Shown here piece after piece: positions 28,571-64,000 of a stretch of DNA of 64,000 nucleotides (position 1 is its first letter; every line of letters starts with the position of its first letter). Made by a program: the position numbers and the translations under genes. The notes beneath the pieces are model-generated. The model searched no databases and was not told the origin of the DNA. It was given only the letters and a program-made list of their open reading frames with translations. Source of the DNA: Membranipora membranacea (taxonomy: Eukaryota; Bryozoa; Gymnolaemata; Cheilostomatida; Membraniporidae); NCBI GenBank assembly GCA_914767715.1, contig OU612069.1, positions 3,782,001 through 3,846,000 on the forward strand. The letters run 5' to 3'.

Positions 28571-29576
28571 TCTGGCCTAAAACAATCCTCCAACATTGAT
28601 GGTAAGTTCAATTCACACTTTTTAAGTAGTTCTCACTCCAAGCTAAAACAAATTTGATAAAGCTCTTTGTAGAGGTGAATACTCATTCCATAGAGATCTG
28701 TATTTGACAGTTTGAAAAGGTATATGGAGTTTTATAGTACTTTAGGAGGTTATTTACTGGTGCTCAGTGAGTATAAAGCAAACCAGGTGAGTGTGAAAAT
28801 GACTCAATCAGTATTAGGTTTAGTGGACATTGGTCTGAAGATTCGACATGGAAGATAACAAAACAAAAATATAGAATAACAAAAAATTTATTTGAGCTTT
28901 GTTATTTCAAGCCTGCGATGATTTCCTACTGTGAATACTTTACTCATCTTGGTATTTGTCCGCCTCACAAGAAAATTTTCTCAATTGGTTCGATAGCTAG
29001 TGAAAAAAGTTGATACACTGTCTTTTTTGTGACCATGAGGTTGCTACTTTTGTTTTTAATTTTCTGGGCTAGGTGCAAAAATATTCAACTACTGAAAGTG
29101 CACTTCCTTGTCATGTTATTAATGGGTATATCACCGGGTTGTGTGATTTCATGTAGGATATATCTTGTCATGATGAAACTGGGATACAAATAAACAACGC
29201 TTATTGTTTATTAACAATGATTGAATTCTATTGGTTGACTCCCAAAGAAACGCTTAATTTAGAATTATGTTACCTGGTGGAAAATGACTATACAAATTGA
29301 TGGCTTTTTGGTTGGCACATGTTAACGGCAGTTCAGGAAAAGTAAGTCAGAGAAAATTAGAATATATTCTGGGTGGTCAAACAACCAACATTGATTAGTT
29401 TGCTTAAATATGATAGTTTTTCATTCTTTACGCTTCAGCGGTATTGTCGAGATATCATTTTACTATTCTCACCCACTTACTGCATATCGCTCTGCAAGTG
29501 TTTCAAAAATGTGTTGTGAGTTTACTCAGTATAATTCTAAATATTCCATCTATGTTAACTTCGAGACATCTTGATT

Positions 29577-30743
29577 ATGGAGGTTTCACTTGTCCTCGCT
29601 CTGACTCTTATGGTTGTGATGGTGTTCTCTACATCTGGAGTAGAAGCCAGTTCTCACCATGTAAGCTTTTATCATGTTATTCAATGTATATCTAGGTACA
29701 GTTTATTCACTGGTGATTGATCGAGTAAAGCTGTAGCTCCACGAGACGATGTAACCACAGGCCGATGGCATGTCTAGACATGCTCAGCCGATCTCACACT
29801 GCTACACAGGCCTATGAGTTAGTACACGATGGTCTAGTGAGTCATAGTGGGGTTATAAATCAGGTGCCTAGATTGACCAATGAACTCCCTCAGTTCAATC
29901 GATTGACCAATGATATTTAATGGGCTTGTTAACAAATGACCGGATATAGATGTCATATTAAATCCGGGTCTTTGTCACTTTGAATCTTCACCAAATAAAA
30001 TTTCAGTGTTCTGTAAAATTGATTTTCCTATGCTATACTATGGATGTCATGTCAGGACAGCTTCCATTTCCAAGTGATACAGCTATTACCTTCCATATTT
30101 TCACTACAGCACCACTCCTATCTTTGTAGTTATTGTCTTTTTTATCATAAATAGGAGGATGTGATTTTACTGCAGATATTATCAGCTCCTCCATTTTTGA
30201 TAGCCTGTCACAATTTAATAGATGACTGTTTAACCGCGTAATTATTGAAGCAAGCAATCAACAACCAATCAGCATAGAGGATCGTCCAGATCACTCGGGC
30301 AAAAGACCAGCAAGTTCGATGTCCACTTAACACGAGTAATCACTCGTGCAGATCCACCGATTAACCACTCGTGACCCCAAATGGATGTAAAAATCGTCTC
30401 GTGTAGCTACAACTTAAAAGACGCCTATGCTACATTTTGGTGTTACATTATCTAATAAACGCTATCAAGATCTTAGTACATACACACATGTGCTTGAACG
30501 AAGTTCAGATTCAAAGTTTGAAAGGCATTCACAGAAAGCTATTTGTTGTCAAACCAATTACTGAACTGGCGTCATGACATTGATGACTTCATAATAACAG
30601 CGACTTGTTTCATTCCATTTCAGAAGCCTTGTTGCAGAATTGTATATTGCAATCACTGTAACTTTTGGGGATACAAGCCATCATGTAACCAACGGCCAAG
30701 AACAGTCTGTGATCATCAGTGTAAAGATCATCATTGGGCGTGA
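29577..30743 (+). CDS. Secreted Cys/His-rich peptide, copy 1 (7 Cys; leader lost)
   Basis: Two coding exons, 29577-29660 (28 codons, phase-0 GTAAGC donor) and 30624-30743 (39 residues plus stop, after CCATTTCAG); 67 aa in all. Exon 1 is a signal peptide (MEVSLVLALTLMVVMVF and then STSGVEA). Exon 2 begins KPCCRIVYCNHC and ends CDHQCKDHHWA. Its cysteine pattern is CC-x4-C-x2-C-x8-C-x7-C-x3-C: the sister pattern of six plus one extra cysteine at the position that is Tyr in copies 2, 3 and 5. Relative to the other copies, the promoter and leader exon are deleted near 29366 and the leader acceptor AG is AT at 29552-29553. The coding part is intact, so it is either recently silenced or expressed from a different start. 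I do not recognise the family. Confidence 0.62.
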
Positions 30744-30906
30744 CAGTAAACTTTCTTAGACTTGACCAGCAACCTCTGATGAAGGACCTTTAAGTTAACT
30801 TTCACTATTCATGATTGCTTTATTGGAAACTTTTATTGATTGTTAATTACCATCTACTTTTTTGTTCATATTCTTTTTTTAATAGGCGACTTACCAGGCC
30901 TTTGAA

Positions 30907-30912
30907 AATAAA
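30907..30912 (+). terminator. Possible polyadenylation signal of peptide copy 1
   Basis: AATAAA about 165 nt after the stop codon, comparable to the spacing in copies 2 and 4. Confidence 0.35.
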
Positions 30913-31547
30913 CAATTTTCATCAAGTTGTCTTCCCTTGGAAAAGGGACAGTAGCATTGAGCACATCATTAGTGATGACAGAATTCATGGAATAACTCCT
31001 ATTCCAAGAAAGCTAAAATTACGGGGTTTCCATAGGATCATGTCAGTGTAGTAAGATATCTGATAGCATAGTTTTCGATACCCTACTTGGAATTATTTGA
31101 TATTTTTTTATGTACTGCCCAGTGGTTTTTTCAGGTAACTACAGTAAAGGCATGTTGCTCATCACAGCAATAAATTGACCTAAGGTACACCAGTACGCAT
31201 TTTGGCATAGATATGTTATGCTATGTTTATTGTCTGCTATGGTAAGGTAAAATAGAGGTATCGTGCTGATGACAAGTGAGGGCACTGTGCCTGTACGGGG
31301 ATAAAGTGAATGTTGGATGAGACCATTATAATAAAATTATTCAGACAGAGATGTAAACTATGAGCGATGTCAGTAGCCAGGTATTGCCTAGCAATAACAA
31401 AAATATACCTGTACGTCCTCTGAAGTCCTATTGTCAGCTCCGTTACAAGTTTTAACGACATAAATGCGACAGATTTTTAAACAGACTGTCATACCTATGC
31501 CAGGCCAGGTCAGGCCAAATATAAGCAGGTCAGGCCAAATATAAGAC

Positions 31548-34018: not shown

Positions 34019-37000
34019 GTGAGCGATTTTCATTTCGGACCGATGCGCTTGTTTGCTCTTTTTAAAATAAGATTATAATGGAGCAACTGATTCTTCTTGC
34101 CGACAAAGCCTTGCTTATTTCAGATTCACCCAGAAATGGTCCATGCAATGCTTTATAGTTTGTACCAAATCTTGCAATTTACCAAACACTAGCCTCCCAA
34201 ATCAGATCCATGCTGACGAAATAACTCAAAAACTCGACAAATCAATTTCATAAGTGACTGTTGTGTGCTTTGACATGTGGTCTCATAAGACCTGCTGCAC
34301 TCAGTCAGTAATGTTGATAGTCTATGTTAAGATGTGCTGAGTATCTGTGATGCACCCAGATGGACAAGATCTAATGAAAAAATAGAAAGTTTCTCCAGGT
34401 ATCCCACTGCTAACACGATTATCAATACTCTTTAGGAGGCAATCAAATTCATTTAAATTTTACATCACCCTGAAGTCCGAAACAACTAGATGACAAATTT
34501 ATTGAGTTGAATTTACCTTGTGACTTGTATTTTCTAGTTTTTAAACAATGTAAACAACACAGTTTATCCAAAAGTGTTCAAACATCAGAATATTTGCAAC
34601 AATTGTTGAAAAGATTGTCAAAACCCCAAATCACTCAGTATTAATCATTGCATATTTTGAATTTCAACATCATCCTAATGCCTGAAATGTCGAGATTTAC
34701 AAAGAATTTATTTTAGATTTCTGTGCGATTTGGAAATACATATTTTCAAGAAAAACAGACAATCTACCTGTGTAAATTTTGTATCTTCCATTGAAATTCT
34801 ATTGAAAGCCGCTATTCATGAAGCTAAATTGAAGCATATCACTGGTTTTCATGCGGGCTGAAGACGGAGTTTGATTGGAATGTCATAGCCACAATCTCAT
34901 TTATTCATCATATTAATGTAAACAAACCTTGAAATACTTAGCGATGCTTGATCTGCCTTTATATTGCCAATTTTCCTCTCGAGCAGTAACCATGGTTAAC
35001 AGAAAATGTTGTATCTGCCCAAACACTGTGGGTTATTTCCAGTGGCCGAAATCATACAGTTTTAAACTTGATTGGTGGGACTACTTCAGAGATATTTTCC
35101 CTCTGATAATCACATGGACTCGACGTCGATTTGCTACAAATGCCTCCTAAATGATATTCATTCTCGCTCTCACTAGAGCTGTTAATCTCCCTGTAATTTT
35201 CACTCTCACTGTCTGATGAGCTAGAGCTAGAGATTTAGGTCGTTAGCTTTGTCATTGAATTATGAAATGTCATATACTATCCCATTTTACCAGCTAAACC
35301 ACATGGGACAGATAAATAATGCCTTGTATTCACTCATTCATTCAATAGATAAATTCTGTGTGTTTTGATATCACATGCAGAATATCGAAACCACTGTGTC
35401 ATAACAATAGGCCTCAGTTACAAAGTACTGTATATTCCCATTGTAATCTGAGGTCCAAAAAGGTATTATTTTCAACAAGTGATCACACCTCCAAAGGAAA
35501 AAAACTAGTACATTTTTAATACCTTCTCAACCCAACTGTGAAGGCAAATAAGTCTTAACTGGGCCACAGGCTGCTTTTGAACATAGAATAATGTTTAAAC
35601 TAGACTGAGATCTCTAGAATGATACCAAAAAACCTGATCCTTTACAAACACTTTAAGAAAACAGAGAGCATCTATTTTTTCTTGATTGCACACAGAATTT
35701 CTCTCAAATGGATTTTCTACTAATGCTACCACCACAAACACTGTCACTGTATAATTGTCAGTTTGTGATGGTAAATAACACTACACCTCATGTTTAGTTC
35801 ATAATAAAACTCATAGTTCATTGTCCGTGCCAGTCTCTATCGTCAACATCCATATTGTTAGTAGAGGTGATAATCACCAAGCCGCTTTGGTTGGAATCGC
35901 TGCCTGACAGGTCGTGTATTAGGTGCTGTTGGAGTAGCTTGCTCAGCTTGGCTACCGTTTGAACTGTCAACATTTTGCCTCTGTGGGTTGATTTGGGTAG
36001 CTGGTGAAGGGAGCATAGTTCTGGAGGGCATATCCGCAAATGGAAGCCTTGTCTCATTGACCGATATACCTTCAGGTGATTGGTTATACTCTCCGGGCAA
36101 TCCAGTGAATGGTTTGTCGGCTGTAACTGATTGGTCATCATATATCCACTATAGCTCGGTGTGTTCGGTTACCTGAAGTTGTCACTGCCTGCACCATCAA
36201 AAGAACTTGGCAGCGTCTTACACATGGAATATTACATTTAAATACCCTCCAATCTCCAGACTTAAAAAACCAGCTGTGGGCCACTGACCTCCCTTACCTT
36301 ATAAGGCTCATGGTAGAATGGGGCTCGACATTATCTCTCAACACAAGAACCAAGTTGCCAACAACTATTCATGATCTGATCTCCTACAATTTTTAGCTTC
36401 AACCATTTGATGTTTCAGCTCCGAATCCTTGTCTCGAGTCCCTATATCATCATAAGCTAGTCTGACACTGGGTATCTTAACCTTCAATTTTCTACCAAAC
36501 AATATTTCAGTCGGAGCCTTTCCTGTAATTGAGTGTGGTGTATTCTGGTATGTGTCAAAGTACCTCTGTACTTCTGTTTTATAGCATTTTCTCCCAGCTA
36601 TTGCGATCTGGATTCTCTTTATTAATGACCGATTCTGACGTTCAACCTCCCTATTAGCCTGAGCCCAACAAGGTGTAACCAAATAATGCTTAAACCCCAT
36701 ACACTCGAGAACTCCCGAAAATCAGGTGATATAAACTGCGGAGCATTGTAGGTCTTCAATGAGAGTATCATTTTTCAAATCCTTGAATGCGGCCAACTCC
36801 TTACTCTCAAGCAAAATTTCAGATTTAGAGTCCTCGCATAGTGTTTTTCTACGGAGCCTGTCGGTCAGGAATAAACTTAGAGCAATAATGACCCACGCCC
36901 AGAAAACTTTTCATTTCCCCTACAGTTTTGGTACAGTAGCATCTTGCATGGCTTGCACTTTGTCGGCGCCAGATAAACGATGACCTAGAAAATCAATATC

Positions 37001-37208: not shown

Positions 37209-37215
37209 AAGACGC
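37209..37215 (+). repeat. Target-site duplication of the LINE (left copy)
   Basis: AAGACGC occurs at 37209-37215 and again at 38744-38750, immediately flanking the LINE. Joining the gypsy halves across a single copy restores continuity of the reverse transcriptase reading region. Confidence 0.75.
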
Positions 37216-38745
<1,530 letters not shown>

Positions 38746-39256: not shown

Positions 39257-39688
39257 TGTCACATACACTGTATGTGACACGCCTAGGTGCATGACTCTAC
39301 ATGAAGTTAGGCATTGTATTTTGCACTGTCATGGTTGCCATGGTCTTAATCTGATTAATTGTTATACTCTTCCGCATTTACTTCCATTTTTTGCACATTT
39401 AATTACCATCTAAATGCGGAGGTTGGCCATCAAAATAATGACGTATCATCCCACCTGTTTCTATTTTTACGACTTATTTATACAGGTCAGTATTAAGAAC
39501 AGTGGTTTTTGCTCTGAAGATTCAGTTACAACTTGGCGTTGCAATTTATCAGTTGCCTGGGGCATTTGCCCAGGGTGTAGTTCAGTAATAAAATCATCAA
39601 ACTGCCGAAAAACTGCATTCAGTATTGTAAAGTCATCTCATATGAACTCTGCCAGCAGTGAACTGTCGTGATCTTTCTCGATCCGACA
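39257..39688 (+). repeat. 5' long terminal repeat
   Basis: Begins TG and ends CA. It contains a short inverted repeat at its left edge (GTCACATAC-AC-TGTATGTGAC). Confidence 0.88.
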
Positions 39689-40698: not shown

Positions 40699-41130
40699 TG
40701 TCACATACACTGTATGTGACACGCCTAGGTGCATGACTCTACATGAAGTTAGGCATTGTATATTGCACTGTCATGGTTGCCATGGTCTTAATCTGATTAA
40801 TTGTTATACTCTTCCGCATTTACTTCCATTTTTTGCACATTTAATTACCATCTAAATGCGGAGGTTGGCCATCAAAATAATGACGTATCATCCCACCTGT
40901 TTCTATTTTTACGACCTATTTATACAGGTCAGTATTAAGAACAGTGGTTTTTGCTCTGAAGATTCAGTTACAACTTGGCGTTGCAATTTATCAGTTGCCT
41001 GGGGCATTTGCCCAGGGTGTAGTTCAGTAATAAAATCATCAAACTGCCGAAAAACTGCATTCAGTATTGTAAAGTCATCTCATATGAACTCTGCCAGCAG
41101 TGAACTGTCGTGATCTTTCTCGATCCGACA
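40699..41130 (+). repeat. 3' long terminal repeat
   Basis: Same length as the 5' LTR. The differences I see are TATTTTGCAC versus TATATTGCAC and ACGACTTATT versus ACGACCTATT. Confidence 0.88.
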
Positions 41131-42480: not shown

Positions 42481-43615
42481 CTTACCCAAATAATCTGAAA
42501 TGCTGCTTGTAGTCAAGAGGTTATATTGGTGTTTGGCAGGGGAATCTGAAATTTAATGAAGAAAAAATCAGCTAAGTATTCTAATGTTGCTTGGACAGGT
42601 AGTGACTGGTGCTCCGTAAATAAAATGTGAGAGTGAAGGTGACAAAAGTTGTTGGTTTATTGGACCCTGGTCTGTGAGTTTTGTTGTTTCAAGCCTGCAC
42701 AAAGATGCTTCCCTCCTGCAAAAATTTGACTTCTTTAGGGTATTAGTCTAACTTGTCTCACTAGCTATCGAAGAAGCTTTGATAGTATTATGTTTGTGTG
42801 TTGGTGATGTTTTTTCAATGTTATTGGGAGACGCAGACGCATCTTACTTGTAGCATGGTTTACATAGAAAAGAAACAGCCACTGCATTGTGGTCGTTATA
42901 AAAGAACAATAGAATCTGTTAGCAGACTAATTAACTGTCATCGTTAAGACATGGCATATATAACAGATAGCTAGCGAAACAAATTGGTACAAACTGTTTT
43001 TGTTTGTCCTACCCATAAGGTTGCGACTCACATTTAATTTTCTCATCTAGGTGCCAAAACATTTAATTGTTGAAAGTTCACTTCCTCGTCTTGTCACTTT
43101 ACACACAGGTTGACAGGTGGAAACAGTTGCAATGTAATTAATGTGTATATCACTGAGATATCTTGTAATGATAAAATCAGGATATCTTCATCATTTTCCT
43201 GATGTGGTAACAGTTAAGCAAGAACGATCGAATTCTATTGGTTGCCTCTGGGAAAAAACTCTTGATTTTGGATTATTGCATGATATAAAGCTTTGGTAAT
43301 GATTTATATGGCTATGAGGTTGGCACATGTTAATGTGATTTGCGGCAAAAGCAAGTCACACAAACTACAGTATCGATCAAAGCTTTTCCTGATATCTGTT
43401 GATATTATAATTGATCACCAAGAAAAACCAGAAAACTTGTTGAAACTAGCCTTAATCATTTGGCTGCACACTATGTTTGAGTTGCTATTCATGGAACATT
43501 TTATGTAAATATATTTCCTCTCAACTAAAAAGTGCCATGCCCCGCTATTTTCTGCTTTGTCACTTATTTTCAATTTCGTTTCTGATTATAATCATCTCAA
43601 TAGCAGCACAGAACA

Positions 43616-43692
43616 TATAAATATCAGAGTGCGAGACAGAAATGTCATTGCAGACTGAGAAGTCAACAGAATCACAACTTACAACTATTTTG
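43616..43692 (+). promoter_or_regulatory. TATA-Inr promoter and leader exon of peptide copy 2
   Basis: TATAAATA at 43616-43623 lies 31 bp before the A of an initiator-like TCATT (43647). The predicted 46-nt non-coding leader exon 43647-43692 ends at TTTTG|GTGAGT. The same elements with the same spacing appear upstream of copies 3 and 4. Confidence 0.65.
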
Positions 43693-44393
43693 GTGAGTTT
43701 TATCCTATTCTGGGTGGTCAACCAACCAATAGTGATAATTTTCTTAAATATTGAACAAAATTTAATCTTCACGCTTCCGTGGTATTGTCAAAACATAATT
43801 TTACCATTTTCTCCCTCTCACTGCTTGTTACTCTTCAAGTGTTTTAAAATTTGTTGTGAGTTCACTCAGTATAATTCTAAATATTCCATCTAGGTTAACT
43901 TTGAGTTATTTGGAAGATGAAGGTCACCCTTGCTCTCGCTCTGGTTCTGGTCTTTTTCCTGGTGCTCTCCACATCTGGAGTAGAAGACAAACCACACCAT
44001 GTAAGTTTTATCTTATTTCTGAGGTATATGTTGGTAATGTTTTTTTACTAATGATCAGTCGAGTAAAACAGGCATATGTTACATTATAATTATCATCATC
44101 ACATCCAATCAATAATATTGAGCTCTTACTATATATATACATGTGCTTGAACAGAGTATAGTTTCAAAGTGATCCATAAATAAACTATTCAATGCTCAAC
44201 CTGATTCTGTATTAGCGTTTTGCCATTGCCTACATCACATTTATGAGGAACTTGTTCTGTTCATTTTCAGAGACGCTGTTGCAAGTATAAAACTGTATAT
44301 TACAGTGATTGCTCTTGGGGATGGAAATCATCATGCTACCCTCGGTCAAAAAGAGTTTGTATTGTTTGGTGTAAAAATCATCACTGGGTATAA
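43647..44393 (+). CDS. Secreted Cys/His-rich peptide, copy 2 (6 Cys, 68 aa)
   Basis: Leader exon 43647-43692, a 201-bp intron, then exon 43894-44000 with the ATG at 43917 (28 codons, phase-0 GTAAGT donor), a 270-bp intron and terminal exon 44271-44393 (40 residues and stop) after CATTTTCAG. The signal peptide starts MKVTLALALVLVFFLVLSTS. The mature exon starts RRCCKYKTVYY and ends CKNHHWV, with cysteines CC-x9-C-x7-C-x7-C-x3-C. Histidines (PHH before, NHHW after) bracket the core. Net charge is clearly positive. Predicted secreted, disulfide-linked peptide; defence, toxin-like or metal-binding roles are all only inference. AATAAA follows at 44549. Confidence 0.72.
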
Positions 44394-46780: not shown

Positions 46781-49100
46781 TTTATACTCCTAGGAAAGGT
46801 AGTGACTGGTGCCCAGCAAATAATTAGTGAATGGCAAATAAAGAGTGAACGACAAAAGTCAAATATTTTCGCTATTTCAAGCCTGCCCTTATAAGAGGGG
46901 TGTTAGTCCACCTAAAGGGATTCAGTTGCTAGCTAGTAAAACAAACTTGTAACTGTAATGACATGCATTTTCAGTTTCCCCACTCTCCAAAAGATGTCTT
47001 GGCCTTCTCATAAGGTTGCTACTTTGTCTTATTTTCATACCTATATGCCAAAACTTTCAAATGTTGAAAGTTCACTTCCTCTTCTTGTCAACATCTACTG
47101 TAATTAATGAGGATATCACTGGGATGAGTCATTACATGATGTAAGTGCCAGTCATGATGATTGGGATATCTTCAATTGTTTCCTGAAGTGTTGAAATTTG
47201 AATTTTATCATTGTATTTTGAGATGAAAACCTGGTGGAAATAATACTTATAACTTATGGCTATGCTGCTGGGACATTTTCACAATGGTTTGAGTAAAATA
47301 CATTCAAACATATTCCATCAATACTTTCCTGATTGAACTTCAATGGTCACATTACAAATGATTTTCACAATTCAATTGTACACATTATTGGCAGGTGTAG
47401 AAAAAATCTACTGTAATTAGTGAAAATGTTTGCTGGTATGAGTTTTTACATGATGGAAAGTGCCAGTCATGATGAATGGAATATCTTCAATTGTTTCCTA
47501 AAGTGAAAAAATTTGATGATCAGATATTTGAATTTTAATAGTGTTTTTGCTATGAAAATCTCGTAAAAATAATGGTTATAACTTATTGCTATGCTGCTGG
47601 AACAAATTCACAATGGTTTGAGTAAAAGACATTCAAGAATATTCGATCAATACTTTCCTGATTGAGCCTGAATGTTCAAATTAAAAAACAGTTTTATAAT
47701 TTTTGATTATGATGAGAGGCTTATACTTTTCAATTTACCAATGATATGAGTAATGATAGTGAGTAATTTGATCAAACATATTAAATTTTTGAAAAACTGA
47801 TGAATGCGTTTTAGGGGTAACCAGAGATCTAATGTTTTACATAATGGAAAAGGCTTCAAGATGTGTTTTAATTTTTTTTCGAATGATTACTCTAAAATGC
47901 ACCAGAGCTTAGCACAGTCAAGCCGCCAACAGCTGAAGTTTTCTCCTAGAGGCTTAAAATAGACAAGCATAGAGGGATAATTATCTGTTAGAATTAAGTT
48001 TCACTAGTTTGGAGTTAATGTTAAAGGGAGCATTGTATCCGCACCTTTGAGTTAGGACTTAACTCCTGACAGCCAATCGATAAACATCATTGGTATGCTC
48101 AAAATCAAGTTAGTTTTTACTCCAGTCTAAACCAAACTGAAGTTAAGATGTAACACTGGAAGTTCCATTTCCATAGACAACAGTATATGACAGTTTGAAG
48201 GGGAATCTGGAGTTTCCTGAAGAAGAAATCAGCTGAATATTCTCATTGTTCCTATTTTCATTTCTTATCATTTTCTTGATACTCGTTAGGATAGGTAATG
48301 ACTGGTACAAAGTATATACAAAAAAGAAATACGGAGAAAATACAGAGTAAATGAGGTGAAGGTGACTCCATAGTTTCTTATTTTATTGAACGTTGGTCTG
48401 AAGATAAGATATCAAAAGATTTATTTTGAGATTCATTATTTCAGTACAGCACAAAAACGATGTATTTCTCATGTGATTAACTTACTTCTATTAGGTATTA
48501 GTTCACCTTCGGGAAAAGTTTTCTCAATCCATCCTGTTGCTAGTGAAACAAATTGGTTCACCGACACAACTGCATGGAAATCTATTTTCAGATCCATCAC
48601 TTTCCGACGATGATTTCCCTTCTTACTGAGTTGATACTTAGCATCATTTTGTGATTAGGTGCCAACATTCAATTCGATTGTTGAAAATGTCAGTTGGGAA
48701 AAATAATACTGCAAATAATGGGAATATTGCTCGGACATGTCAAGTCATGAAATAGATATTTTGTCATGATCAAATAAGATGAGCACCTCTGTTCCAGGTC
48801 ATTTTCTCCTTCAGGATGGTCACAGAGATTTGAATCGCGTAAAAAGATATGGAGAATCAATATACTAGGAAATATATACTTCCAGGGGCTCCCGATGTCC
48901 ATCATCCTTAATTGTTACTAGGTTTGTTAAGTGTTGACTACTTAAGGTGTCTTCACCTTTGAATGACTTCAGAGGCTTGGGATTAACTCCAACCTCCAGA
49001 CCTATCCGGGGTTAAATCAGTAACTCAAGATTTTCGTTGGTTAAATAGATTGGGGATTGGGCCCAGCCTCAATGTTAATATTAGCTTGACAATCTTTAAG
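46780..49100. repeat. Array unit remnants without peptide exons
   Basis: 46790-46900 resembles upstream sequence of copies 1 and 2 (GGTAGTGACTGGTGC). 47370-47960 closely resembles 54730-55450 (TGAGCCTGAATNTNCAAATTA, GCCGCCAACAGCTGA). 48000-49090 closely resembles 57010-57960. These are partial duplicates that lost, or never received, the gene. Confidence 0.75.
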
Positions 49101-49414
49101 AACTCTTGATAAGCATATGAAAGTCTTCATATCTTACAATCGGCTGTTGTCTTGTAATTAGGATTGGGAAACACTGAAATTTGTCATCAAGTTAGTGTTG
49201 AACATATTATTTAAAATAATATCTATCGATCTTTATCTGCCAAAAAGATTGGGAAATTCAATTTATAGTCAATTTTAAAGAGCTTATAAGGTTTAGGATG
49301 AGGTTAAGGTTCAATCGTTGGTCCTGTGTTGTCAGGATCAACAGCAACCAACACAAAGATCTATTGTCTCTGGGTTTTGCAATGCCCTACTGAATGAATG
49401 TTTTTCAATTTTTT

Positions 49415-52500: not shown

Positions 52501-52959
52501 GAATATCACCGGGTTGTGTGATTCCATATAGGATATATCTTGTCATGATGAAACTGGGATACAAATAAACAACACTTTATTGTTCATTAACAATGATTGA
52601 ATTCTATTGGTTGACTATTCAAGAAACTTAATTTAGGATTATGTTACCTGGTGGAAAATGACTATAAAAATTGATGGCTTTTTGGTTGGCACATGTTAAC
52701 GGCAGTTCAGGAAAAGTAAGTAAAAATAATTAGAATATTGATCAAAGCTTTTCCTGATATCTGCTAATACTATAATCGATCACTCAAAAAAACAAGGAAA
52801 TTTTGTTGAAAGCGCTTTCATTGAGTTGCTATTTATGATAAATTTTATATAAATATATATCCTTGCAATAAAAAAGTGCCAACCTCCGCTATTTTCTGCC
52901 TAGTCACTTGTTTTCAATTTCGTTTTTGATACTAATCATCTCTATGGTAACTTGGAACA

Positions 52960-53036
52960 TATAAATATCAGAGTGTGAGACAGAAATGTCATTGCAGACT
53001 GAGAAGTCAACAGATTCACAACTTACAACTATTTTG
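52960..53036 (+). promoter_or_regulatory. TATA-Inr promoter and leader exon of peptide copy 3
   Basis: TATAAATA at 52960-52967, initiator-like TCATT with A at 52991, leader exon 52991-53036 and donor GTGAGT. Nearly identical to copy 2 over the whole block. Confidence 0.65.
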
Positions 53037-53710
53037 GTGAGTACATATTTTGGGTGGTCAAACAACTAACATTGATTAGTTTATTTTTATTATGTACGCT
53101 TCAGCAGTATTGTCAATATAATGTTTTACTATTTTCACCCTCCCACTGCTTGTTGCTCCACAAGTGTTTTAAAATGTGTTGTGAGTTCACTCAGTATAAT
53201 TCTAAATATTCCATCTAGGTTAACTTGGAGATATTTTGAAGATGAAGGTCACCCTTGCTCTCGCTCTGGTTCTGGTGGTTGTGTTAGCGTTCTCTACAGC
53301 TGGGATAGAAGCCAGATCTCACCATGTAAGGTTTTATCATGTCATTGAGGGTTATCATTGTAAGGTTATTTCACTGATGATGAACCGAGAAAATATGCAT
53401 ATGATACATTATGGTGTCACCACATCCAATTAATGGTCTTAGGTCTTAGAACAAACATACATGTGCTTGAACGAAGTTCAGATTCAAAGCTTCACAGGCA
53501 TTCACAGAACACTATTTGTTGTCAAACCAAATACTGTGCTGGTGTCATGACATTGCTGACTTCATAATAACAGCAACTTGTTTTATTCCATTTTAGAAGC
53601 CTTGTTGCAGAACTGTATACTACAAATATTGCTCTTCGGGATGGAAACCATCATGTTCAATTAGATCAAGAAGATATTGTAGCCGTTGGTGTAAAAATCA
53701 TCATCATTAA
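52991..53710 (+). CDS. Secreted Cys/His-rich peptide, copy 3 (6 Cys, 65 aa)
   Basis: Leader exon 52991-53036; exon 53219-53325 with the ATG at 53242 (28 codons, GTAAGG donor, phase 0); terminal exon 53597-53710 (37 residues and stop) after CATTTTAG. Signal peptide MKVTLALALVLVVVLAFSTA with a likely cut after GIEA, leaving RSHH at the mature N terminus. The mature exon starts KPCCRTVYYKYC and ends CSRWCKNHHH: CC-x7-C-x7-C-x7-C-x3-C, two residues shorter than copy 2 before the third cysteine. It is strongly basic and ends in a histidine triplet. All parts of the gene plan are present, making this and copy 2 the best candidates for active members. Confidence 0.75.
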
Positions 53711-53719
53711 TCTTATGTG

Positions 53720-55480: not shown

Positions 55481-55486
55481 TCACTA

Positions 55487-57013
55487 TGTATGTATGTATG
55501 TATGTATGTATGTATATATTTATATCAATTCTCATGATAAAATCAATTTTTCTCGTGTGCTCTGTGAATAAAAATAAAGTTTTAAAAATTATAATAAAAC
55601 GCTGACTAGATTTATGATAAATGAATCAAGCTATTCAATTGAGCAGTTTTACTCATAATGAGCGAAAACAGTATTTACAGCAGTTTACAAGGTAGGCTGG
55701 CACTCTGTATCCACCAGATGGGAGTTGTTCTAGCGTTATGACAGTCTTTGCCCGAAGCGAACATTCTCAGGCATTTAGTTTTGAAGTACTTATCGAATAT
55801 ATCGTCTATGGTTGTAACTTCAAGCCTGCCTTTGCTTACGTGCCTCTACGTGCTGTGCTGATGAGGTGATTGTACTGGTTCTTAATATCAGATGAGAGGT
55901 GTCCATATATAATACATAGGTGATATTGTAGGACACTTTCGAGAAATGAGGCGTATGCCAGCTTAATGGTAGTTGTCTTGACATTCATAAAGGCTAGCTG
56001 CTTCATGATGAATAGTTGTTTGTTAGCTTTGCTGATGATGTTTTTGGTGTTCGTATTGAAGTTAAGCTTATGATTGAGTGTGGTGCTATTTGTATTCATC
56101 TACTCGTTCGATGGCGGAGTTGTTGGTCATGATGGGTGGAGGGTCAGGATCATCGCGTAGATTACAGCAAACAAGCTCTTTGGTTTTCTTTGTGTTGATG
56201 AGCAGACTGTTTCTTGTGCACCATGATCTGATATTATCGATTTAAACTTGCAGTGATGATTGTGATTTTGGCGAGATGAATTCTAATATCACAGTGTCAT
56301 CGGCGTATTTAATGAGGGTGTGATCATCGCTTACTGCCATGTCGTTTACGTAAAGTGAGAAGAGGATAGGACTGAGGACACATCCCTGAGGGCATCCAGT
56401 TGATGTTATGATGCTGTTAGATAGAGTGTTACCTACTTTCACTCGCTGTGTACGTGATGACAGAAAGTTATATGACCAGGATACGATGTTGGGGTTTACT
56501 TTATGAACTGACATCTTTTGGACTAGGGTGTTAATGTTGATTGTATTAAAAGCACTGCTAAAGTCAATGAAAATCGAGCGTACATAATTCTTTGCAGAGC
56601 TATTGAGATGTTTAGTGATTTTGTCAAGTAACAACGATAGTGCATCGTCTGTTCTGCTGTTACGATTATAGGCAAACTGGTTACTATCGGCAATGTGAGC
56701 ACTGATGTGGGGCGCTACAAGTTTCTCAAGACACTTAGCGAGGATTGGTGTCAGGGCGATGGGCCTAAAGTCTTTAGGTTATGTTGCGCCTTTCAGTTTA
56801 AGTAAAGGCACTATATTGGCAGCTTTCCAAATATCGGACACAATGGCACTTTGTAGCGAGATATTGAACAATGTACACATAGGAGCAGCTATACAATCTG
56901 CTAGTGTTCTTATCATCCGTGCCGATATCCCATCAGGGCCACTACTTTTACCAACGTCTACGTTCCTGAACACATTGTACACATCACTGATAGTAAAAAA
57001 TGTCATTACCTAG
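55487..57013 (-). mobile_element. 5'-truncated LINE with (CATA)n tail
   Basis: On the minus strand, 57006 to 56242 is one frame interrupted by a single stop near 56776. It contains GKSSGPDGISARMIR, DFRPIALTPILAKCLEKLV, NQFAYNRNSRTDDA, FIDFSSAFNTI, GCPQGCVLSPILFSLYVND and the catalytic box IKYADDTVIL. The thumb and C-terminal region follow to about 55690, frameshifted. The 3' tail is a (CATA)n run (55487-55513 read on the minus strand). In the duplicate unit at 48000-48030 the flanks run together without the LINE, giving the empty site. It is related to, but clearly different from, the LINE at 37.2 kb. Confidence 0.87.
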
Positions 57014-58100
57014 TTAGGAGTTATTGCTAAAGGGGGAATAGTAACCGCACCTTTGAGTTAGGAATTAACTCCTGAGCAACAAGATACCAACAAACATCAT
57101 CGGTATGCTCAAAATCAAGTTCGTTTTTACTCCAGTCTAAACCAAACTGAAGTTTAGATGTAATACTGGAAGTTCCATTTCCATACACAGCAGTGCATGA
57201 CAGTTTGAAGGGGAATCTGGAGTTTCCTGAAAAAGAAATCAGCTGAATATTCTCATATTCCTATTTTCATTTCTTATCATTTTCTTGATACTCGTTAGGA
57301 TAGGTAATGACTGGTACAAAGTATATACAAAATAAAAATACGGAGAAAATACAGAGTAAATGAGGTGAAGGTGACTCCATAGCTGCTTATTTTATTGGAC
57401 GTTGGTTTGAAGATTAGATATAAAAAGATTTATTTTGAGATTCCTTATTTCAGTACAGCAAAAAAACGATGTATTTCTCATGTGATTAATTTACTGCTAT
57501 TAGGTATTAGTCATAGACCTACTAATAATTATTAGTAGGTCTATGGTATTAGTTCACCTTCGGGAAAAGTTGTCTCAATCCAACCTGTAGCTAGTGAAGT
57601 CATGAAATAGATATCTTGTCATGATCAAATAAGATGAGCACCTCTATTCCAGGTCATTTTCTCCTTCAGGATGGTCACAGAGATTTGAATCGCGTAATAA
57701 GATATGGAGAATCAATATACTAAGAAATATATACTTCCAGGGGCGCCCAATGTCCATCATCCTTAATTGTTACTAGGTTTGTTAAGTGTTGACTACTCAA
57801 GGTGTCTTCACTTTTGAGTGACTTCAGAGGCTTGGGATTAACTCCAACCTCCAGACCTATCCAGGGTTAAATCAGTAACTCAACATTTTCGTTGGTTAAA
57901 TAGATTGGGGATTGGGGATTGGGCCTATGGGCGCAGCCTTAATTATAATATTAGCTTGACAAACTTCACGAACTGTACTCTTGATGAGCATATGAAGTCT
58001 TCATATCAAACAACCGGTTATTTTTTTTGTAATTTGGACTGGGAAACACCAAAAATTGTCTCATCACTAATTCATGTGGTTTGAAGTCGCTGAATAAACC
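57014..58100. repeat. Array unit homologous to 48030-49090
   Basis: Long collinear match (CACCTTTGAGTTAGGA-TTAACTCC at the start, GATTGGGGATTGGG near the end). It differs by an inserted 34-bp palindrome and by loss of about 150 bp after TAGCTAGTGAA (57587-57600) relative to the other copy. Confidence 0.8.
57504..57553. mobile_element. 34-bp perfect palindrome flanked by an 8-bp target duplication
   Basis: CATAGACCTACTAATAA followed by its exact reverse complement occupies 57512-57545. GTATTAGT flanks it on both sides (57504-57511, 57546-57553) and occurs once in the homologous unit near 48494-48502. It is either an extremely short inverted-repeat element or a relic left by two transposon ends. 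Confidence 0.75.
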
Positions 58101-58619: not shown

Positions 58620-58697
58620 TATAAAATATCAGAGCGTGAAACAGAAAGGTCATTGCAGACTGAAAAGTCAACAGATTCAAAACTAACAACTACTTTG
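58620..58697 (+). promoter_or_regulatory. TATA-Inr promoter and leader exon of peptide copy 4
   Basis: TATAAAATA at 58620-58628, initiator-like TCATT with A at 58652, leader exon 58652-58697 (46 nt, the same length as in copies 2 and 3), donor GTAAGT. Confidence 0.62.
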
Positions 58698-60177
58698 GTA
58701 AGTTTTTACATACTCTTGGTGGTCAATCAGCCAACATTGATTAGTTTCTCAAATATGATAATATTTTCATTCTTTACACGTCAGGGGAAGTAAAAATATT
58801 ATTTTACTATTTCCACATGTATTTTCAAATTTGCTATTCTACTCAAATTCAAATGTGTTCTTAGTTCACTCAGTATAATTTGTGATATTCTATCTAGGTC
58901 AACTTGAATATATTTGGAAGATGAATGTCACCCTTGTTCTCACTTTGGTTCTGGCTGTTGCCCTGGTGTTCTTTACATCTGGAATAGAAGCCAGATCTCA
59001 CCGTGTAAGTTTTATCATATTATTCGATGTATATCTAGGTGCTAGGTCTAGGTTTATTTACTGATGATTGAACGAGTAAAAGATGTGTATGTTTCACTAC
59101 TTTTATTAAGATCACATCCAATTAAAAGTGTTAAGCTCTTACTATATACAAACATGTGCTTGAACCGAGTATAATTTCAAAGTGATCCATAAAAAAACTA
59201 TTTGATGCTAAACCTAATTCTGTTAGTTAGACCGAGTAAAAGAAGCATTTGTTACATCCCAATTGATTGAGTTTAGTTTCAAAGATTGACAGGGATCGAC
59301 AAAACACTATTTGCTGTCTAACCTAATGATGTGTTTGTTTCATGTTTCATATCGCAATAACAGCAACTTTCTATGTTCCATTAATTCAGAGCCGTTGTTT
59401 AAAAACTCTTGACTCGTGACTCTTGGGTATGGAAAGCATCATGTTAACTTCGTTTAAAAATAGATTTTAGGCATCGGCGTTAAGATCATCATTGGGAACA
59501 GCAGTAATGTTACCGTAATCCCTCACCTATAAGTCACCGGACTTATAAGTGAATCACCCCCCTCAGAAAAAATAAAAAAGCTCCAGCTATAAGACACCCC
59601 ACAGCTATAAGACACCCCACCGCTCTAAGACACTCACTACACTACACTCACTACAAATGAACTAAGTAGTTTTGGGAAAAAAACTGCCCTCAGTGGGTTT
59701 CGAACTCACAACTCCATGTTTACAAGTCGAACGCTCTACCACTGAGCTATTCATCTTCGGTGATTGTTAGAGGTTTTGGTCCAAAGTAAATATAATAATG
59801 CTTCAAATGATAGTCGCGTCTATATACTACTCTCTTATAGCCGCCTTCACTTATACGTCGCGCGATCTATAGGTGAGGGATTACGGTATGCATGACAGGA
59901 AAAAAAACGTTCCATGGACGACCTTGAGACTTGAACTGAAACTTTAAATGGTTCATGATAATTATGTTGGAAACGATTATTTTTTTGTGAATTCATTTGT
60001 AATGTATTGGTTGTAGATCATTTCTTCAATACCTCATTTATTAAATTTAGGAAAATTGAGATGTAATTATATTCTTATCTTTTTTTTTTCTAGAGGTGTT
60101 GTTGCGAGGGAGCTAATTCATATGATTATTGCAATGAACGATCCTTGTCTTGCTGTTTACCCACTCGCCACCAATAA
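58652..60177 (+). CDS. Peptide gene copy 4: family signal exon joined to a new Cys-rich exon
   Basis: Leader exon 58652-58697 and exon 58898-59004 with the ATG at 58921. The signal peptide MNVTLVLTLVLAVALVFFTS ends in SGIEARSHR, with a GTAAGT phase-0 donor. The ancestral mature exon (59390 on) is dead, but at 60094-60177 a different exon follows a long pyrimidine tract and CTAG. It is open in the right phase and encodes 27 residues: RCCCEGANSYDYC then NERSLSCCLPTRHQ, six cysteines as CCC-x8-C-x6-CC. This would give a 55-residue precursor. It lies downstream of sequence homologous to the 3' untranslated region of the other copies. AATAAA follows at 60320-60325. Splicing to this exon is predicted, not shown. 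Confidence 0.5.
59390..59506 (+). pseudogene. Dead ancestral mature exon of peptide copy 4
   Basis: After a TTAATTCAG acceptor the sequence starts like the other mature exons (AGCCGTTGTT). The second cysteine codon is lost, a stop (TGA) comes at codon 10, and the downstream match to the other copies (ATGGAAAGCATCATGTTAAC, GATCATCATTGGGAACAGC) is frameshifted. It cannot encode the family peptide. Confidence 0.78.
59513..59886. mobile_element. 374-bp TA-flanked miniature inverted-repeat element with a tRNA-like insert
   Basis: Perfect 19-bp terminal inverted repeats (CCGTAATCCCTCACCTATA at 59513-59531 and its reverse complement at 59868-59886) are flanked by TA on both sides, as for Tc1/mariner-type insertion. 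It sits just after the stop position of the dead exon, in the ancestral 3' untranslated region of copy 4. Confidence 0.78.
59688..59760 (-). repeat. tRNA-Thr-like sequence inside the miniature element
   Basis: The minus strand reads AATAGCTCAGTGGTAGAGCG (A box), CTTGTAA as an anticodon loop with TGT, and GAGTTCGAAACCC (B box). The acceptor stem does not pair, so this is a tRNA-derived repeat rather than a functional gene. Confidence 0.55.
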
Positions 60178-60319: not shown

Positions 60320-60325
60320 AATAAA
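60320..60325 (+). terminator. Polyadenylation signal after the new exon of copy 4
   Basis: AATAAA 143 nt after the stop of exon 60094-60177. Confidence 0.4.
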
Positions 60326-60580
60326 CATCAGGAACAGGAATTTAAATCAGTGAGTAACAATCGGCTGACATCAATCCAAAAGATGGTATATTTGATGATT
60401 CAGATTAAATGAGATGTATAGCTCCATAATGCTATAAAAATCATCTTGATCTCAAGATACCGCCCAATTAGATACCTAAATTTGACATATTTACTGATAC
60501 ATACAGGCAGCCCTATGACTTTAAGATCACGAAATAATAAAATCTTTTAAAGTTTTCATTGTCAAAACTGATATATGCAG

Positions 60581-61210
60581 TAGTGTTGTATTCAGGGTCG
60601 AGTCAACGGGTCGGGTTTCGGGTTTCTGTGGTCGGATCATGTTAGGGTCAAGTCGGGTCAGAGGTCTACATCTTTACGGGTCTCAACTACTAGAGTGATA
60701 GTCAAAATACTGCGTGCACCTGGACTCGAACCTGTGACCTAGTGCACGATCTTAACCACTATGCTATGGATTTTAGATGATGATTCCGGAAATAGAGACT
60801 ATACGATGATAAAACATATAGCTATTAGTCATGCTTTTGCTGTGATTATTATGAACGGCTTACAACACTACATAAAGCTTTCTTCAGACATCTATAATTC
60901 AATAAATTCTTGACAGAATTTGATGAAACTTAGTCTCAACATAGTTCATTATGTCTAGATGATATATTACAAACTGAATCAAACTTAACATGTTCTATTA
61001 GCTAATTGCACTAGTGATTAGTGGATGAATATCCATCATTCTGTTAAATTGTGATATCTGAAGACAGTGTAGGAGTAGGACATGACTTATGAAGTCGTAA
61101 TGTAAATCCAATTCACGCGCTCTTTTCGACCCGACCCGGCTCGTACCCGAATTTAGGGAAATTTCAGTGGCTCGGCTCGTTTTCATTTTTGCTGGCTCGA
61201 TACAACACTA
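60581..61210. mobile_element. 630-bp hAT-type miniature element
   Basis: Perfect 10-bp terminal inverted repeats, TAGTGTTGTA (60581-60590) and TACAACACTA (61201-61210). They are flanked by a perfect 8-bp target duplication ATATGCAG (60573-60580, 61211-61218), the hallmark of hAT elements. The ends also share diverged GGGTCGGGTT / ACCCGACCCGG stretches. No transposase is present. Confidence 0.87.
60708..60775 (-). repeat. tRNA-like sequence inside the hAT-type element
   Basis: The minus strand has TAGCATAGTGGTTAAGATCG (A-box-like) and AGGTTCGAGTCCAGG (B box). It is tRNA-like, with no evident acceptor stem. Confidence 0.5.
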
Positions 61211-61218
61211 ATATGCAG

Positions 61219-61600
61219 TTGCGTGAGTAGTCATTGGCTATAACAGGAAATGACAGTTAATGTATTGAATGGATTACAATGTGGAATCCTCAACATGAAC
61301 AAGCAGCAAGCTGGCCTACCTGCTACAGCCTGGCATGCTTTTCTTACCAAACAGAATACTGGACACGACTTAACGCTGCTATGTATATGTGTGGTCTATG
61401 AATGAAAGCAGGAGAATATTGCAATGGGGGCAAGACATTGCTTGAAATGCATAATTTTCTTGATAAACTCTCTTATCATATTACTAGTGCACCCAGTAAA
61501 TGTAGTTCTCATACTGGTGGCTAGTAGACCTCTCATGACCAGAGCAAGGGGGGAAGGTTGACTAATATGGACATCAGCAAAATATTCAGGCTTGTCACTT
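61219..61600. other. Non-coding, nothing recognised
   Basis: Unique-looking sequence between the hAT-type element and the fifth array unit. Confidence 0.5.
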
Positions 61601-62283
61601 GGTAAGGTCTATTTGCTGATGATGAACCGAGTAATAGACGCATATGTGTGATATTGAACAAGTGGTGACACTAATATCTCTTTGGATATTTTAAAATCTT
61701 AATTTAATTGCCAAGGGAAACAATTTGTATTTCCGGTCAACGCTATAAAAAAACTCACGTTTGTTTATAGTCTCGATACCATGTGATACCGTGTGAGAAA
61801 CCTAGATGTTTTTCGGTTTATATGTTTCCGGTATCATCAGTATGGGTCTACAGACTTTGTAGACTAGAGTGGCACAGGAGCATTTGAGGTCGTATGCCCT
61901 TCCTGAAACCACCGTGATACGCCGAGAATCGAACATGGGACCTCTTGACTGAAAGACCCATGCTCTTTCCATTGCCACGGCCACTCCTTTAAAGGCTATG
62001 TTTCTTCATAATCACACTCACCATTTCATCACAGTTAGAAGTTATCATATCCAACTAATTAATTTATGTAAGGTTTGTAAGGGATCCACGTAAAACCATT
62101 TGATGTATCCTGTATTGGCATCTTGAAATCAACAACTATTGTTCTGTTCCTTTTCAGAGCAGTTGTTGCAAAACTGTATCTTACAGTTACTGCAGCTCTT
62201 GGGGATAGAAAATATCATGTACAGTGAATTCAAAGAGGAATTGTCAGCAATGGTGTAAAGGTCATCGCTGGAATCGACAGTAA
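61601..62283 (+). pseudogene. Peptide copy 5: signal exon missing, nonsense in mature exon
   Basis: From GTAAGGTCTATTTGCTGATG (61600) the sequence matches the intron of copy 3 (GATGATGAACCGAGTAATAG), but the signal-peptide exon that should precede it is absent. The mature exon 62158-62283 follows CCTTTTCAG. Its first 16 codons are open (SSCCKTVSYSYC and on), a TAG stands at 62206-62208 where copies 2 and 3 have a Trp codon, and the rest of the frame keeps the remaining three cysteines. It is a recent pseudogene, since only one codon breaks the exon. Confidence 0.8.
61900..61985 (-). mobile_element. tRNA-derived SINE remnant in the copy 5 intron
   Basis: On the minus strand, GTGGCAATGGAAAGAGCATG (A-box-like) precedes ATGTTCGATTCTC (B box), and a unique tail runs towards 61740. 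It overlaps a chance 60-codon frame. Confidence 0.55.
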
Positions 62284-64000
62284 AGTGTGACTGGACTAAC
62301 AACCACTGACGAACGACCTTGGGCTTGAAATGAAACTTTAACAATTCATCATTACTATGCTGGGACTTTAATCGATTGTGAATTTCCATCTACTATTTTG
62401 TTCATATTCTATTTTAATTCATTGAAAAATATACTTGTTAACTACAAAGATCAAGTTATTTTCTCAAACACATGATATTGTGGTAGCTTAAGCAGCCAAT
62501 CGAAGGTATCCAACTTCTTCAACCAGCCCTGTTACTTAATAATATTATAGACAAGATTTGTAAGCAGGCCTGGCTGAGAAAACTGGATCTGATTAATTGA
62601 TTTACAACTCAATCTTATCCCACCTATCTATCGCACACACAACTGCCACTACACCAAACACTAACACTACTACTGCTTTCGCAACGATAACCACCACTAC
62701 CACCACTACCATGACCACCACTCCCACTACTAGACAGTAGGTTTCGGTAGAGAGTCATAGTTGAATATTTACCAATGAAATAATGTTATTAAATGTAACA
62801 GACAAAAGACAAAGACAAAAGCAATATATAACTTGGCATTTAGTTCTGCAGGAGTCATGTACTAGTTTTACTCTGAAAAATTAATAGCACTTCTGGGTAA
62901 TTCTTGTGTACAGTGTTGGAAATCCCCCCCCCCCCTGATCTATGATGTATCAAAGCCTAGTGTCGTGCCAGTCCAAAAGTCTACAACTTCCAAATAATTT
63001 TGATTTCGATTTTTAAACAATAATAAAAAAAGAATATTCATATTTTGCATTGTCAAGGGCATGGAACAAGAGTCGATAACATAGCAGCTCTCTTAAGTAG
63101 ATGGAAGTGGTAGATGGAATCGCTTATCGATGTAAAACTTTATGAAGCTAGGGTTGGTGACACATAGTTCGATGTTATAGTTCAGTCCCAATGCTCAAGT
63201 CTTGTGGCAACTTTCGTTTTGAGTGATATTTCTAAGGTACACCTCTGGTTATGATAGTTGATTATATTCTCATTCCTACATCATATCCATTCTGAAGAAA
63301 TTATAATTGCTACAATTATTTACAAAGTAGTCTGCTCTGATCCTTTTTGGAAGGACTCATTGCCGTTCATATCATAGCTCTCTCTAGACAAATGAACCAG
63401 TGCTGCAGTAGACAGAAACTTGTGCAGTGGTCTGTGGGGTGGGGAAGAGGAGATGGCATCTTTTATTACAAAGTTGGAATTTAACCACAGATCAATGAGC
63501 ACGACACCAGTTCTTTTCTACCCCAGATTTTTGCTTGCAAACCCCAGATCCAAAATTATTTTCGCGCTTTGCGCATATCTGGGGTTCATTAATAAAATCA
63601 ATATGCCAGCTTGCTTGGCTCAAAAAAGTCTGACCCACTTCAATATGCTAATTTCTAAAAGTGGCCCACTGGCAAAAAAATTTGAGTTATATACAAATTA
63701 TATCAAAGTTTAGCAAAATCAAGCAGCCTGCAGTTGTTGTTTTTCCCTTAGTAGAGGACTACATATTATTTGTTAGAGTTTATTCCATTTGTTAAGAGTT
63801 TAGTTCAGTGTTGGATTTTGGGGGGAACGCAACGGGATAGTGTCCCCCTTTTTACTTTGTCTAGGGAGATATATCATAACCACTACGATGGCAATAAGCC
63901 TTGGGTTTGCAGGCTTGGGCCCATGATTTTCAAATGTTATCACCACAGGACCCAGCCGGGGCACTAGGCAGCCCCCTGGACTGGTTACGTCATATTTTTC
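62284..64000. repeat. 3' flank of copy 5 and edge of a further array unit
   Basis: 62300-62940 parallels the 3' flank of copy 2 (ACTTTAA-AATTCAT, A/C-rich microsatellite, C homopolymer near 62930). At about 63715-63800, CAAGCAGCC-GCAGTTG and TTTGTTAGAGTTTATT recall 47925-48000 and 55405-55480, so the array probably continues past the window. No further exon was found. Confidence 0.5.

What the first reader, a model, noticed from the sequence alone, without database searches (positions are those of the whole stretch)
28600..64000. Tandem family of tiny secreted Cys/His-rich peptide genes, family unrecognised
Five copies share one gene plan: TATA-Inr promoter, 46-nt leader exon, 28-codon signal exon with a phase-0 donor, and a mature exon of about 40 codons. 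The core pattern is CC-x7-9-C-x7-C-x7-C-x3-C with histidine pairs on both sides. The frames are too short for ordinary gene calling, so the family is easily missed. The mix of intact, altered and dead copies is birth-and-death evolution, common among defence and venom-like peptides. I cannot match the scaffold to a family I know.
Basis: partly seen in the sequence, partly recalled or inferred. Interest (0 to 1): 0.88.

Follow-up and report, generated by a model that had tools for sequence, protein, structure and literature searches.

The report
Sea-mat cluster of secreted cysteine-rich peptides
A small gene cluster in a kelp-dwelling sea mat (a bryozoan) appears to make tiny secreted, disulfide-rich, positively charged peptides, probably for defence, that match no family we searched.

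Summary
Five related copies lie on the + strand, but only two in the window (A, 43647-44393; B, 52991-53710) have the whole plan: TATA/Inr promoter, 46-nt leader exon, 28-codon signal exon, Cys-rich mature exon. c1 has open exons but lost promoter, leader and exon-2 acceptor. c4 keeps promoter, leader and signal exon; its mature exon is broken and an inverted-repeat insert follows; an unrelated-looking six-Cys exon lies downstream. c5 has a stop and no signal exon. A third complete copy starts 1 kb past the window; a divergent complete gene lies about 114 kb past it.

The window is chromosome 5 of the bryozoan Membranipora membranacea (chromosome length matches the genome note). Genome searches with leader, signal and mature exons found confident matches only in this cluster, but missed known divergent members. 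Conservation mostly falls from promoter/leader to signal to mature exon; within mature exons the cysteines are fixed and the rest drifts. No significant relative was found in Pfam, NCBIfam, PDB sequences or 5.8 billion proteins.

Best reading: a lineage-restricted cluster of secreted cationic disulfide-stabilised peptides, most likely antimicrobial. Expression and function are inferred. New family of a known kind.

The parts
29577..29660 (+). copy c1, signal exon coding part (open, GT donor); exon-2 acceptor lost, promoter and leader missing upstream (junction near 29365)
   Evidence: similarity to B jumps from 52738 to 53045
30624..30743 (+). copy c1, mature exon, open, 39 codons + stop, 7 Cys
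43611..43646 (+). copy A, TATA box and promoter block (with the leader 97.7% identical to B over 88 nt)
43647..43692 (+). copy A, 46-nt non-coding leader exon, GTGAGT donor
43894..44000 (+). copy A, exon 2: short 5'UTR and 28-codon signal sequence (ATG 43917), phase-0 donor
44271..44393 (+). copy A, mature exon, 40 codons + stop, 6 Cys
52955..52990 (+). copy B, TATA box and promoter block
52991..53036 (+). copy B, 46-nt leader exon
53219..53325 (+). copy B, exon 2 with 28-codon signal sequence (ATG 53242)
53597..53710 (+). copy B, mature exon, 37 codons + stop, 6 Cys
58652..58697 (+). copy c4, 46-nt leader exon behind a TATA/Inr promoter
58898..59004 (+). copy c4, exon 2 with open 28-codon signal sequence (ATG 58921)
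59390..59510 (+). copy c4, remnant of a family mature exon, no long open frame from its acceptor
59511..59888 (.). insert with 18-bp terminal inverted repeats (by eye) and a marginal tRNA-like stretch (59692-59750, minus), which splits the c4 similarity to A and B
60094..60177 (+). open exon candidate, 27 codons + stop, 6 Cys, behind a strong pyrimidine tract and AG, phase 0, downstream of c4; AATAAA at 60320; homology to the family not established
62158..62283 (+). copy c5, mature exon with an in-frame stop at 62206-62208; no leader or signal exon found

Best explanation
A lineage-restricted, tandemly duplicated family of host peptide genes in the bryozoan Membranipora membranacea. Each intact gene has a TATA/Inr promoter and three exons (leader, signal, mature) and would give a 65-70 residue precursor whose signal peptide sends it to the secretory pathway. 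Signal cleavage would free a basic peptide of about 5-6 kDa with probably three disulfides. It most likely acts as a defence (antimicrobial) peptide at the colony surface or in body fluid, possibly helped by metal binding at its His-rich ends. Shown by sequence: gene plan, homology, splice signals, fixed cysteines, restriction of confident matches to one cluster. Inferred: expression, splicing, secretion, disulfides, antimicrobial action, metal binding.
For: Gene plan and homology. In 3 of 3 pairs of open mature exons in the window the six shared Cys codons have 0 non-synonymous changes over 16 sites, while the other codons have pN 0.27-0.35. Mature dN/dS is 0.37, 0.40, 0.40; in three neutral simulations (29 or 35 substitutions; B to A, B to c1, A to B) an open frame with all six Cys survived in 0.0006-0.0018 of trials. 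Gaps are multiples of three in 3 of 3 mature-exon pairs and absent in 6 of 6 signal-exon pairs, but mostly not multiples of three in introns and 3'UTR. Net charge of the exon-3 part is +8 (A), +9 (B), +4 (c1), pI 8.8-9.8. Confident genome matches: leader 6 places at up to 2 mismatches, signal exon 5, mature exon 5, all in this cluster. A further complete copy c6 and a divergent complete gene d1 lie outside the window. Variable mature parts behind conserved signal parts, with gene gain and loss, are common in defence and venom peptides (general knowledge; for mussel myticin-C compare passages of PMC3164099).
Against: No transcript, peptide or activity evidence. Outside the cysteines the mature exon changes almost as fast as intron 2 (whole exon A-B 74.6% against 70.3%), so selection on the rest is weak or diversifying, and dS rests on about 20 sites. 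Signal-exon dN/dS is 0.71, 0.72, 0.73, 0.49, 1.38, 0.52, and signal frames would stay open by chance in 76-78% of trials. Only 2 of 5 copies in the window are complete. d1 has 5 Cys and no flanking His pairs; its mature exon is only 42-49% identical in DNA, so its kinship rests on promoter, leader and gene plan. The AlphaFold model is poor (mean pLDDT 63.9, pTM 0.31, 3 sequences) and Foldseek found 0 PDB matches. Metal-binding, structural, signalling or toxin-like roles are not excluded.
Confidence: 0.55

Rival explanations
1. Secreted metal-binding or structural peptides (cuticle, adhesive, mineral or matrix): Cys, His and Tyr bind copper or zinc or cross-link.
For: His pairs at both ends in A, B, c1; His at signal-exon residue 27 in 5 of 5 core copies (c1, A, B, c4; c6). 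If the signal is cut after residue 24, the new N-terminus is X-X-His (RSH or SSH) in 4 of these 5, the copper/nickel-binding ATCUN form (motif definition recalled; the abstract of PMC7232333, seen in the listing, reports it in Cys-rich hepcidin 25).
Against: No signal-cleavage predictor was run; A has KPH behind an unlikely cleavage context (by eye); d1 and d2 lack that His; small fast-changing clusters are unusual for structural proteins (general knowledge).
Confidence: 0.2
2. Peptide signals (hormone-like, pheromone or allorecognition ligands) rather than killers.
For: Small secreted Cys-rich precursors are also typical of signalling peptides; the well kept promoter and leader suggest tight regulation. 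d1 gave a sub-threshold Pfam match to Orexin (E 0.065, 13.6 bits, cut-off 22.6).
Against: Tandem gain and loss, high positive charge, no significant relative found in other animals.
Confidence: 0.12
3. Toxin-like (venom or anti-competitor) peptides; the cysteine order CC-C-C-C-C is that of conotoxin framework IV.
For: Same order of cysteines (framework IV given as CC-C-C-C-C in PMC7551347, passage); conserved signal, variable mature part.
Against: Loops 7-9/7-8/7/3 differ from conotoxins as recalled; no propeptide between signal and mature exon; no sequence match; injecting venom is not known from bryozoans (recalled).
Confidence: 0.08
4. Non-functional remnants of a decaying family that makes no protein.
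For: 3 of 5 copies in the window are broken or incomplete; signal exons have dN/dS 0.49-1.38.
Against: Fixed cysteines and frame-preserving gaps; intact promoter, leader, splice sites and frames in A, B and c6; promoter/leader block 97.7% identical between A and B over 88 nt, against 78.5% for the 5' flank and 81.7% for intron 1.
Confidence: 0.05

Closest known systems
Mussel myticins (Pfam PF10690 Myticin-prepro)
   Same: Small secreted Cys-rich peptides with a variable mature part behind a signal peptide; the only weak profile match seen for more than one member (B 8.6 bits, c6 10.7 bits).
   Different: Both scores are far below the cut-off of 28.5 bits, and A, c1, d1 and the c4/60094 combination did not match it; no C-terminal region like that of myticin-C (domain plan in passages of PMC3164099); cysteine spacing differs (recalled).
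Conotoxin framework IV
   Same: Order of cysteines CC-C-C-C-C.
   Different: Different loops (recalled), no propeptide, no sequence similarity found, different phylum; cysteine order alone is not homology.
Big defensins and beta-defensins
   Same: Six-Cys cationic secreted defence peptides; big defensin is reported from a transcriptome of the bryozoan Flustra foliacea (PMC7203481, passage).
   Different: Their CC pair lies at the C-terminal end and big defensins have a hydrophobic N-terminal domain (both recalled); here CC is N-terminal.
Hepcidin-type ATCUN peptides
   Same: Cys-rich antimicrobial peptide with an N-terminal copper/nickel site (PMC7232333, abstract in the listing).
   Different: Analogy only; the N-terminus here is inferred, and cysteine number and spacing differ (recalled).

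Membership tests
Myticin (PF10690) | Profile score above the curated cut-off (28.5 bits) | tested here: not met
   Best 10.7 bits (c6) and 8.6 bits (B); none for the other 4 of 6 sequences scanned
Any Pfam or NCBIfam family | Profile score above the curated cut-off | tested here: not met
   6 sequences against Pfam (5 predicted precursors and 1 hypothetical c4/60094 combination) and 2 against NCBIfam, a prokaryote-oriented library: 0 above cut-off. Best sub-threshold: DUF4400 E 0.012 and Fungus-induced PF10917 E 0.018 (15.8 bits, cut-off 24) for the combination
Conotoxin framework IV | Cysteine order CC-C-C-C-C | tested here: met
   A, B, c6 and the L005 exon fit (4 of 6 aligned mature exons); c1 has an extra Cys, d1 lacks one
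Conotoxin framework IV | Sequence homology to a conotoxin gene superfamily | tested here: not met
   No Pfam, PDB-sequence or protein-database relative; the protein search needs shared 5-residue words, so a remote tie could be missed
Defensins (big, beta) | Cysteine spacing with a C-terminal CC | tested here: not met
   CC is N-terminal in 6 of 6 aligned mature exons; the defensin spacing itself is recalled
Antimicrobial peptides (functional class) | Killing or growth inhibition of microbes | not testable with these tools
   Needs assays with synthetic peptide
Antimicrobial peptides (functional class) | Secreted, cationic, small | tested here: inconclusive
   Net charge +4 to +9 and 4.6-5.0 kDa for the exon-3 part of A, B, c1; signal peptide judged by eye only
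Expressed spliced genes | RNA reads across the predicted junctions | not testable with these tools
   RNA-seq run ERR6464929 is named in PMC10290214 but reads could not be searched

The most novel reading that the evidence does not exclude
A bryozoan-specific effector system in which one regulatory cassette (TATA/Inr promoter + 46-nt leader + signal exon) is kept while the mature exon behind it is freely diversified and even replaced (the six-Cys exon at 60094 behind c4; the 5-Cys exon of d1), with a copper-binding X-X-His N-terminus in most core copies.
Probability: 0.2. Interest if true: 0.68.

Novelty: new variant of a known kind. Interest (0 to 1): 0.45.

Why it matters
Little seems to be in print on gene-encoded peptide effectors of bryozoans (searches of an open-licence library), though the phylum is mined for drug leads (PMC6722838, title in the listing). 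A compact, single-locus family with a diagnostic leader exon gives a clean handle: expression can be read from an existing RNA-seq run, the peptides are short enough to synthesise, and the ladder of complete, altered and dead copies makes the origin and turnover of a taxon-restricted gene family directly testable. It is also a reminder that such small split genes are easily missed: the protein database holds at least one named Watersipora subatra protein but gave no relative of this family; whether that means absence or missing annotation is open.

Tried and rejected
Rejected: chance open frames; membership in myticins or any Pfam family; the C-type lectin resemblance among PDB sequences (best E 0.014, one short stretch), taken as a Trp/Cys coincidence; a viral or prokaryote origin (62 and 126 pattern matches, 0 confirmed relatives). 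Homology of the 60094 exon to the family was tested and not established: shuffle p 0.284, 0.035, 0.021 (free) and 0.37, 0.179, 0.031 (cysteines fixed) against B, A, c1; no BLASTN match to a family exon; the mature-exon profile did not list it at E up to 5. Fold prediction gave a poor model and 0 PDB matches. A paper search for four peptide strings found 0 papers. Searches on Cys-rich and antimicrobial peptides of mussels (20 of 56 listed) and bryozoans (9 of 9, 10 of 36, 12 of 14) listed no title on this family; the library holds open-licence papers only. In the Bugula neritina neuropeptide paper (PMC4990251) I saw 12 of 16 passages on cysteine/disulfide/genome; none describes such a family. 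In Flustra foliacea (PMC13326412, passages) chromosomes have 39-40% GC, which does not fit the window.
Full report
What the window is. The large open frame at 17727-19241 is the end of a secretin-family 7TM receptor gene (PF00002, E 1.8e-19). Of 7 protein relatives found, the only named one is from the bryozoan Watersipora subatra (52% identity); the best is unnamed at 66%. The genome search places the window at G000:C5:3782001-3846000 in an assembly of 339,339,785 bases and 18 contigs; C5 has 29,963,023 bases. The genome note of Membranipora membranacea (PMC10290214; part 1 of 3 read) gives 339,374,674 bases, 21 scaffolds, N50 29,963,023 and chromosome 5 of 29.96 Mb. The exact chromosome length makes the window chromosome 5 of this sea mat; the small differences in total and number of sequences remain unexplained.

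Anatomy. BLASTN of exons against the window finds five copies on the + strand. A and B have a TATA box 31 bases before an Inr-like TCATT (counted by eye), a 46-nt leader ending at GTGAGT, an intron, exon 2 with 28 codons from ATG to a phase-0 GT donor, an intron of 270-271 bases, and mature exons of 40 and 37 codons. c1 (29577-30743) has open signal and mature exons, but the equivalent of B 52739-53044, with promoter and leader, is missing, and the exon-2 acceptor reads CTAT where A, B and c4 read CTAG. c4 keeps promoter, leader and signal exon; its family mature exon has no long open frame, and the downstream similarity is split by an insert with 18-bp inverted ends and a marginal tRNA-like match (29.3 bits, gathering 29; ARAGORN found no tRNA). 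c5 has traces of intron 2 and a mature exon with one in-frame stop.

Coding evidence. A-B identities: leader segment 98%, intron 1 82%, signal exon 81%, intron 2 70%, mature exon 75%, 3'UTR 78%. The 3' end of intron 1 and the start of exon 2 are also high (90-98% in 40-column windows). Gaps in mature exons are 3 or 6 bases in 3 of 3 pairs; elsewhere mostly not multiples of three. Mature dN/dS is 0.37, 0.40, 0.40; signal dN/dS 0.71, 0.72, 0.73, 0.49, 1.38, 0.52. The shared Cys codons carry no non-synonymous change in 3 of 3 pairs; other codons differ at 27-35% of non-synonymous sites, close to the 30% difference of intron 2. The scaffold is fixed and the loops are nearly free. Random substitution kept an open frame in 14-16% of trials and an open frame with all six Cys in 0.06-0.18%.

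Beyond the window. I held chr5 3722001-3985999 (264 kb). A complete copy c6 starts at 3847056, 1 kb past the window: signal MKVTLALALVLVVVLVFTTSGIDARSHY, mature exon of 42 codons with six Cys. On the minus strand of L005 lies a divergent six-Cys mature exon beside a damaged signal exon; the first codons of a similar signal exon lie 23 kb away in L007, each next to a similar repeat (by eye). A weaker mature-profile row in L007 (E 0.3) was not followed. In L016 the complete divergent gene d1 has the same promoter/leader (80-84% to A, B, c4, c6), a signal exon at 57-64% to the core copies (compared from one base early) and a mature exon at 42-49% with 5 Cys; d2 on the other strand has promoter, leader and signal exon but only seven codons of mature exon.

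Which part is kept. Promoter+leader is more alike than the signal exon in 14 of 15 pairs that have both; the exception is B-c6 (90% against 93%), and A-c4 and B-c4 differ by only one point. The signal exon is more alike than the mature exon in 10 of 10 pairs that have both.

Extent. In the 264 kb, both strands, the leader core (up to 5 mismatches allowed) occurs 6 times, each with 0-2 mismatches, control 0. In the whole genome it occurs at 6 places with up to 2 mismatches, all here, and at 2 more (other chromosomes) with 3 mismatches, against 1 in the reversed control. The first 35 bases of the signal sequence match at 3 places (A, B, c6), control 0. Signal-exon DNA finds 5 places (c1, A, B, c4, c6) and the B mature peptide 5 (c1, A, B, c5, c6), all in the cluster. 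These are lower bounds by the tool's own statement: the last two searches missed the known divergent members d1, d2 and L005, so remote relatives elsewhere in the genome are not excluded.

Relatives. Pfam (6 sequences), NCBIfam (2), PDB sequences (profile) and two searches of 5.8 billion proteins gave no significant relative; the best sub-threshold rows are given in the membership table. In one search, 22 candidates shared words and none scored E 10 or better; no candidate shared three words. Split genes of 65 codons may be missing from predicted proteomes, so absence elsewhere is not proven.

Mechanism. Most likely these are secreted, cationic, disulfide-stabilised defence peptides. Shown: homology, splice sites, a signal-like N-terminus by inspection, fixed cysteines, charge. 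Inferred: transcription, secretion, disulfide pairing, antimicrobial action. His27 of the signal exon is present in 5 of 5 core copies; if the signal is cut after residue 24 it is the third residue in B, c1, c4 and c6, which would make an ATCUN copper site. A fits badly, and d1 and d2 lack it. This is a lead, not a result.

The 60094 exon. It is the only other + strand frame of its kind in the window, lies in phase 0 behind c4's working-looking promoter, leader and signal exon, and has an AATAAA 143 bases after its stop. Tests of homology to the family were weak or negative. Replacement of a dead mature exon by a new Cys-rich one is the bold reading; a chance frame or a separate gene is the dull one.

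Verdict. A real, apparently undescribed and lineage-restricted family; ordinary in kind (clustered Cys-rich secreted peptides), new in sequence family and phylum, with the less usual feature that promoter and non-coding leader are generally the best kept part.

Noticed in passing
9032-19241 (+): Secretin-family 7TM receptor gene (PF00002); frames at 9032 and 11513 resemble, by eye, the extracellular part of the Watersipora subatra relative P0003. 6 of 7 protein relatives are at 51-66% identity, one of them named.
   Followed up: partly
59511-59888: Insert with 18-bp inverted ends and a marginal tRNA-like stretch on the minus strand, inside the broken c4 copy; looks like a MITE or tRNA-derived element.
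   Followed up: partly
60094-60177 (+): Open 27-codon six-Cys exon candidate downstream of c4's promoter, leader and signal exon; may be a replacement mature exon.
   Followed up: partly
37211-37996 (+), 56245-56778 (-), 36368-36721 (-): Retroelement fragments between the peptide genes: reverse transcriptase by Pfam for the first, the other two reverse-transcriptase- and integrase-like by eye.
   Followed up: no
48004-49185 vs 57010-58060; 39257-39688 vs 40699-41130: Segmental duplications at 88-92% and 99.5% identity between the peptide copies.
   Followed up: no
L011, L012, L013, L015 (chr5 3915443, 3917648, 3931080, 3947122): Cys-rich frames that look, by eye, like repeats of longer secreted multi-domain proteins, between the two parts of the cluster.
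   Followed up: no
L005 1653-2100 (-) and L007 5080-5115 (-): Two pieces of what may be one divergent family gene, 23 kb apart, each ending at a similar inverted-repeat element.
   Followed up: no
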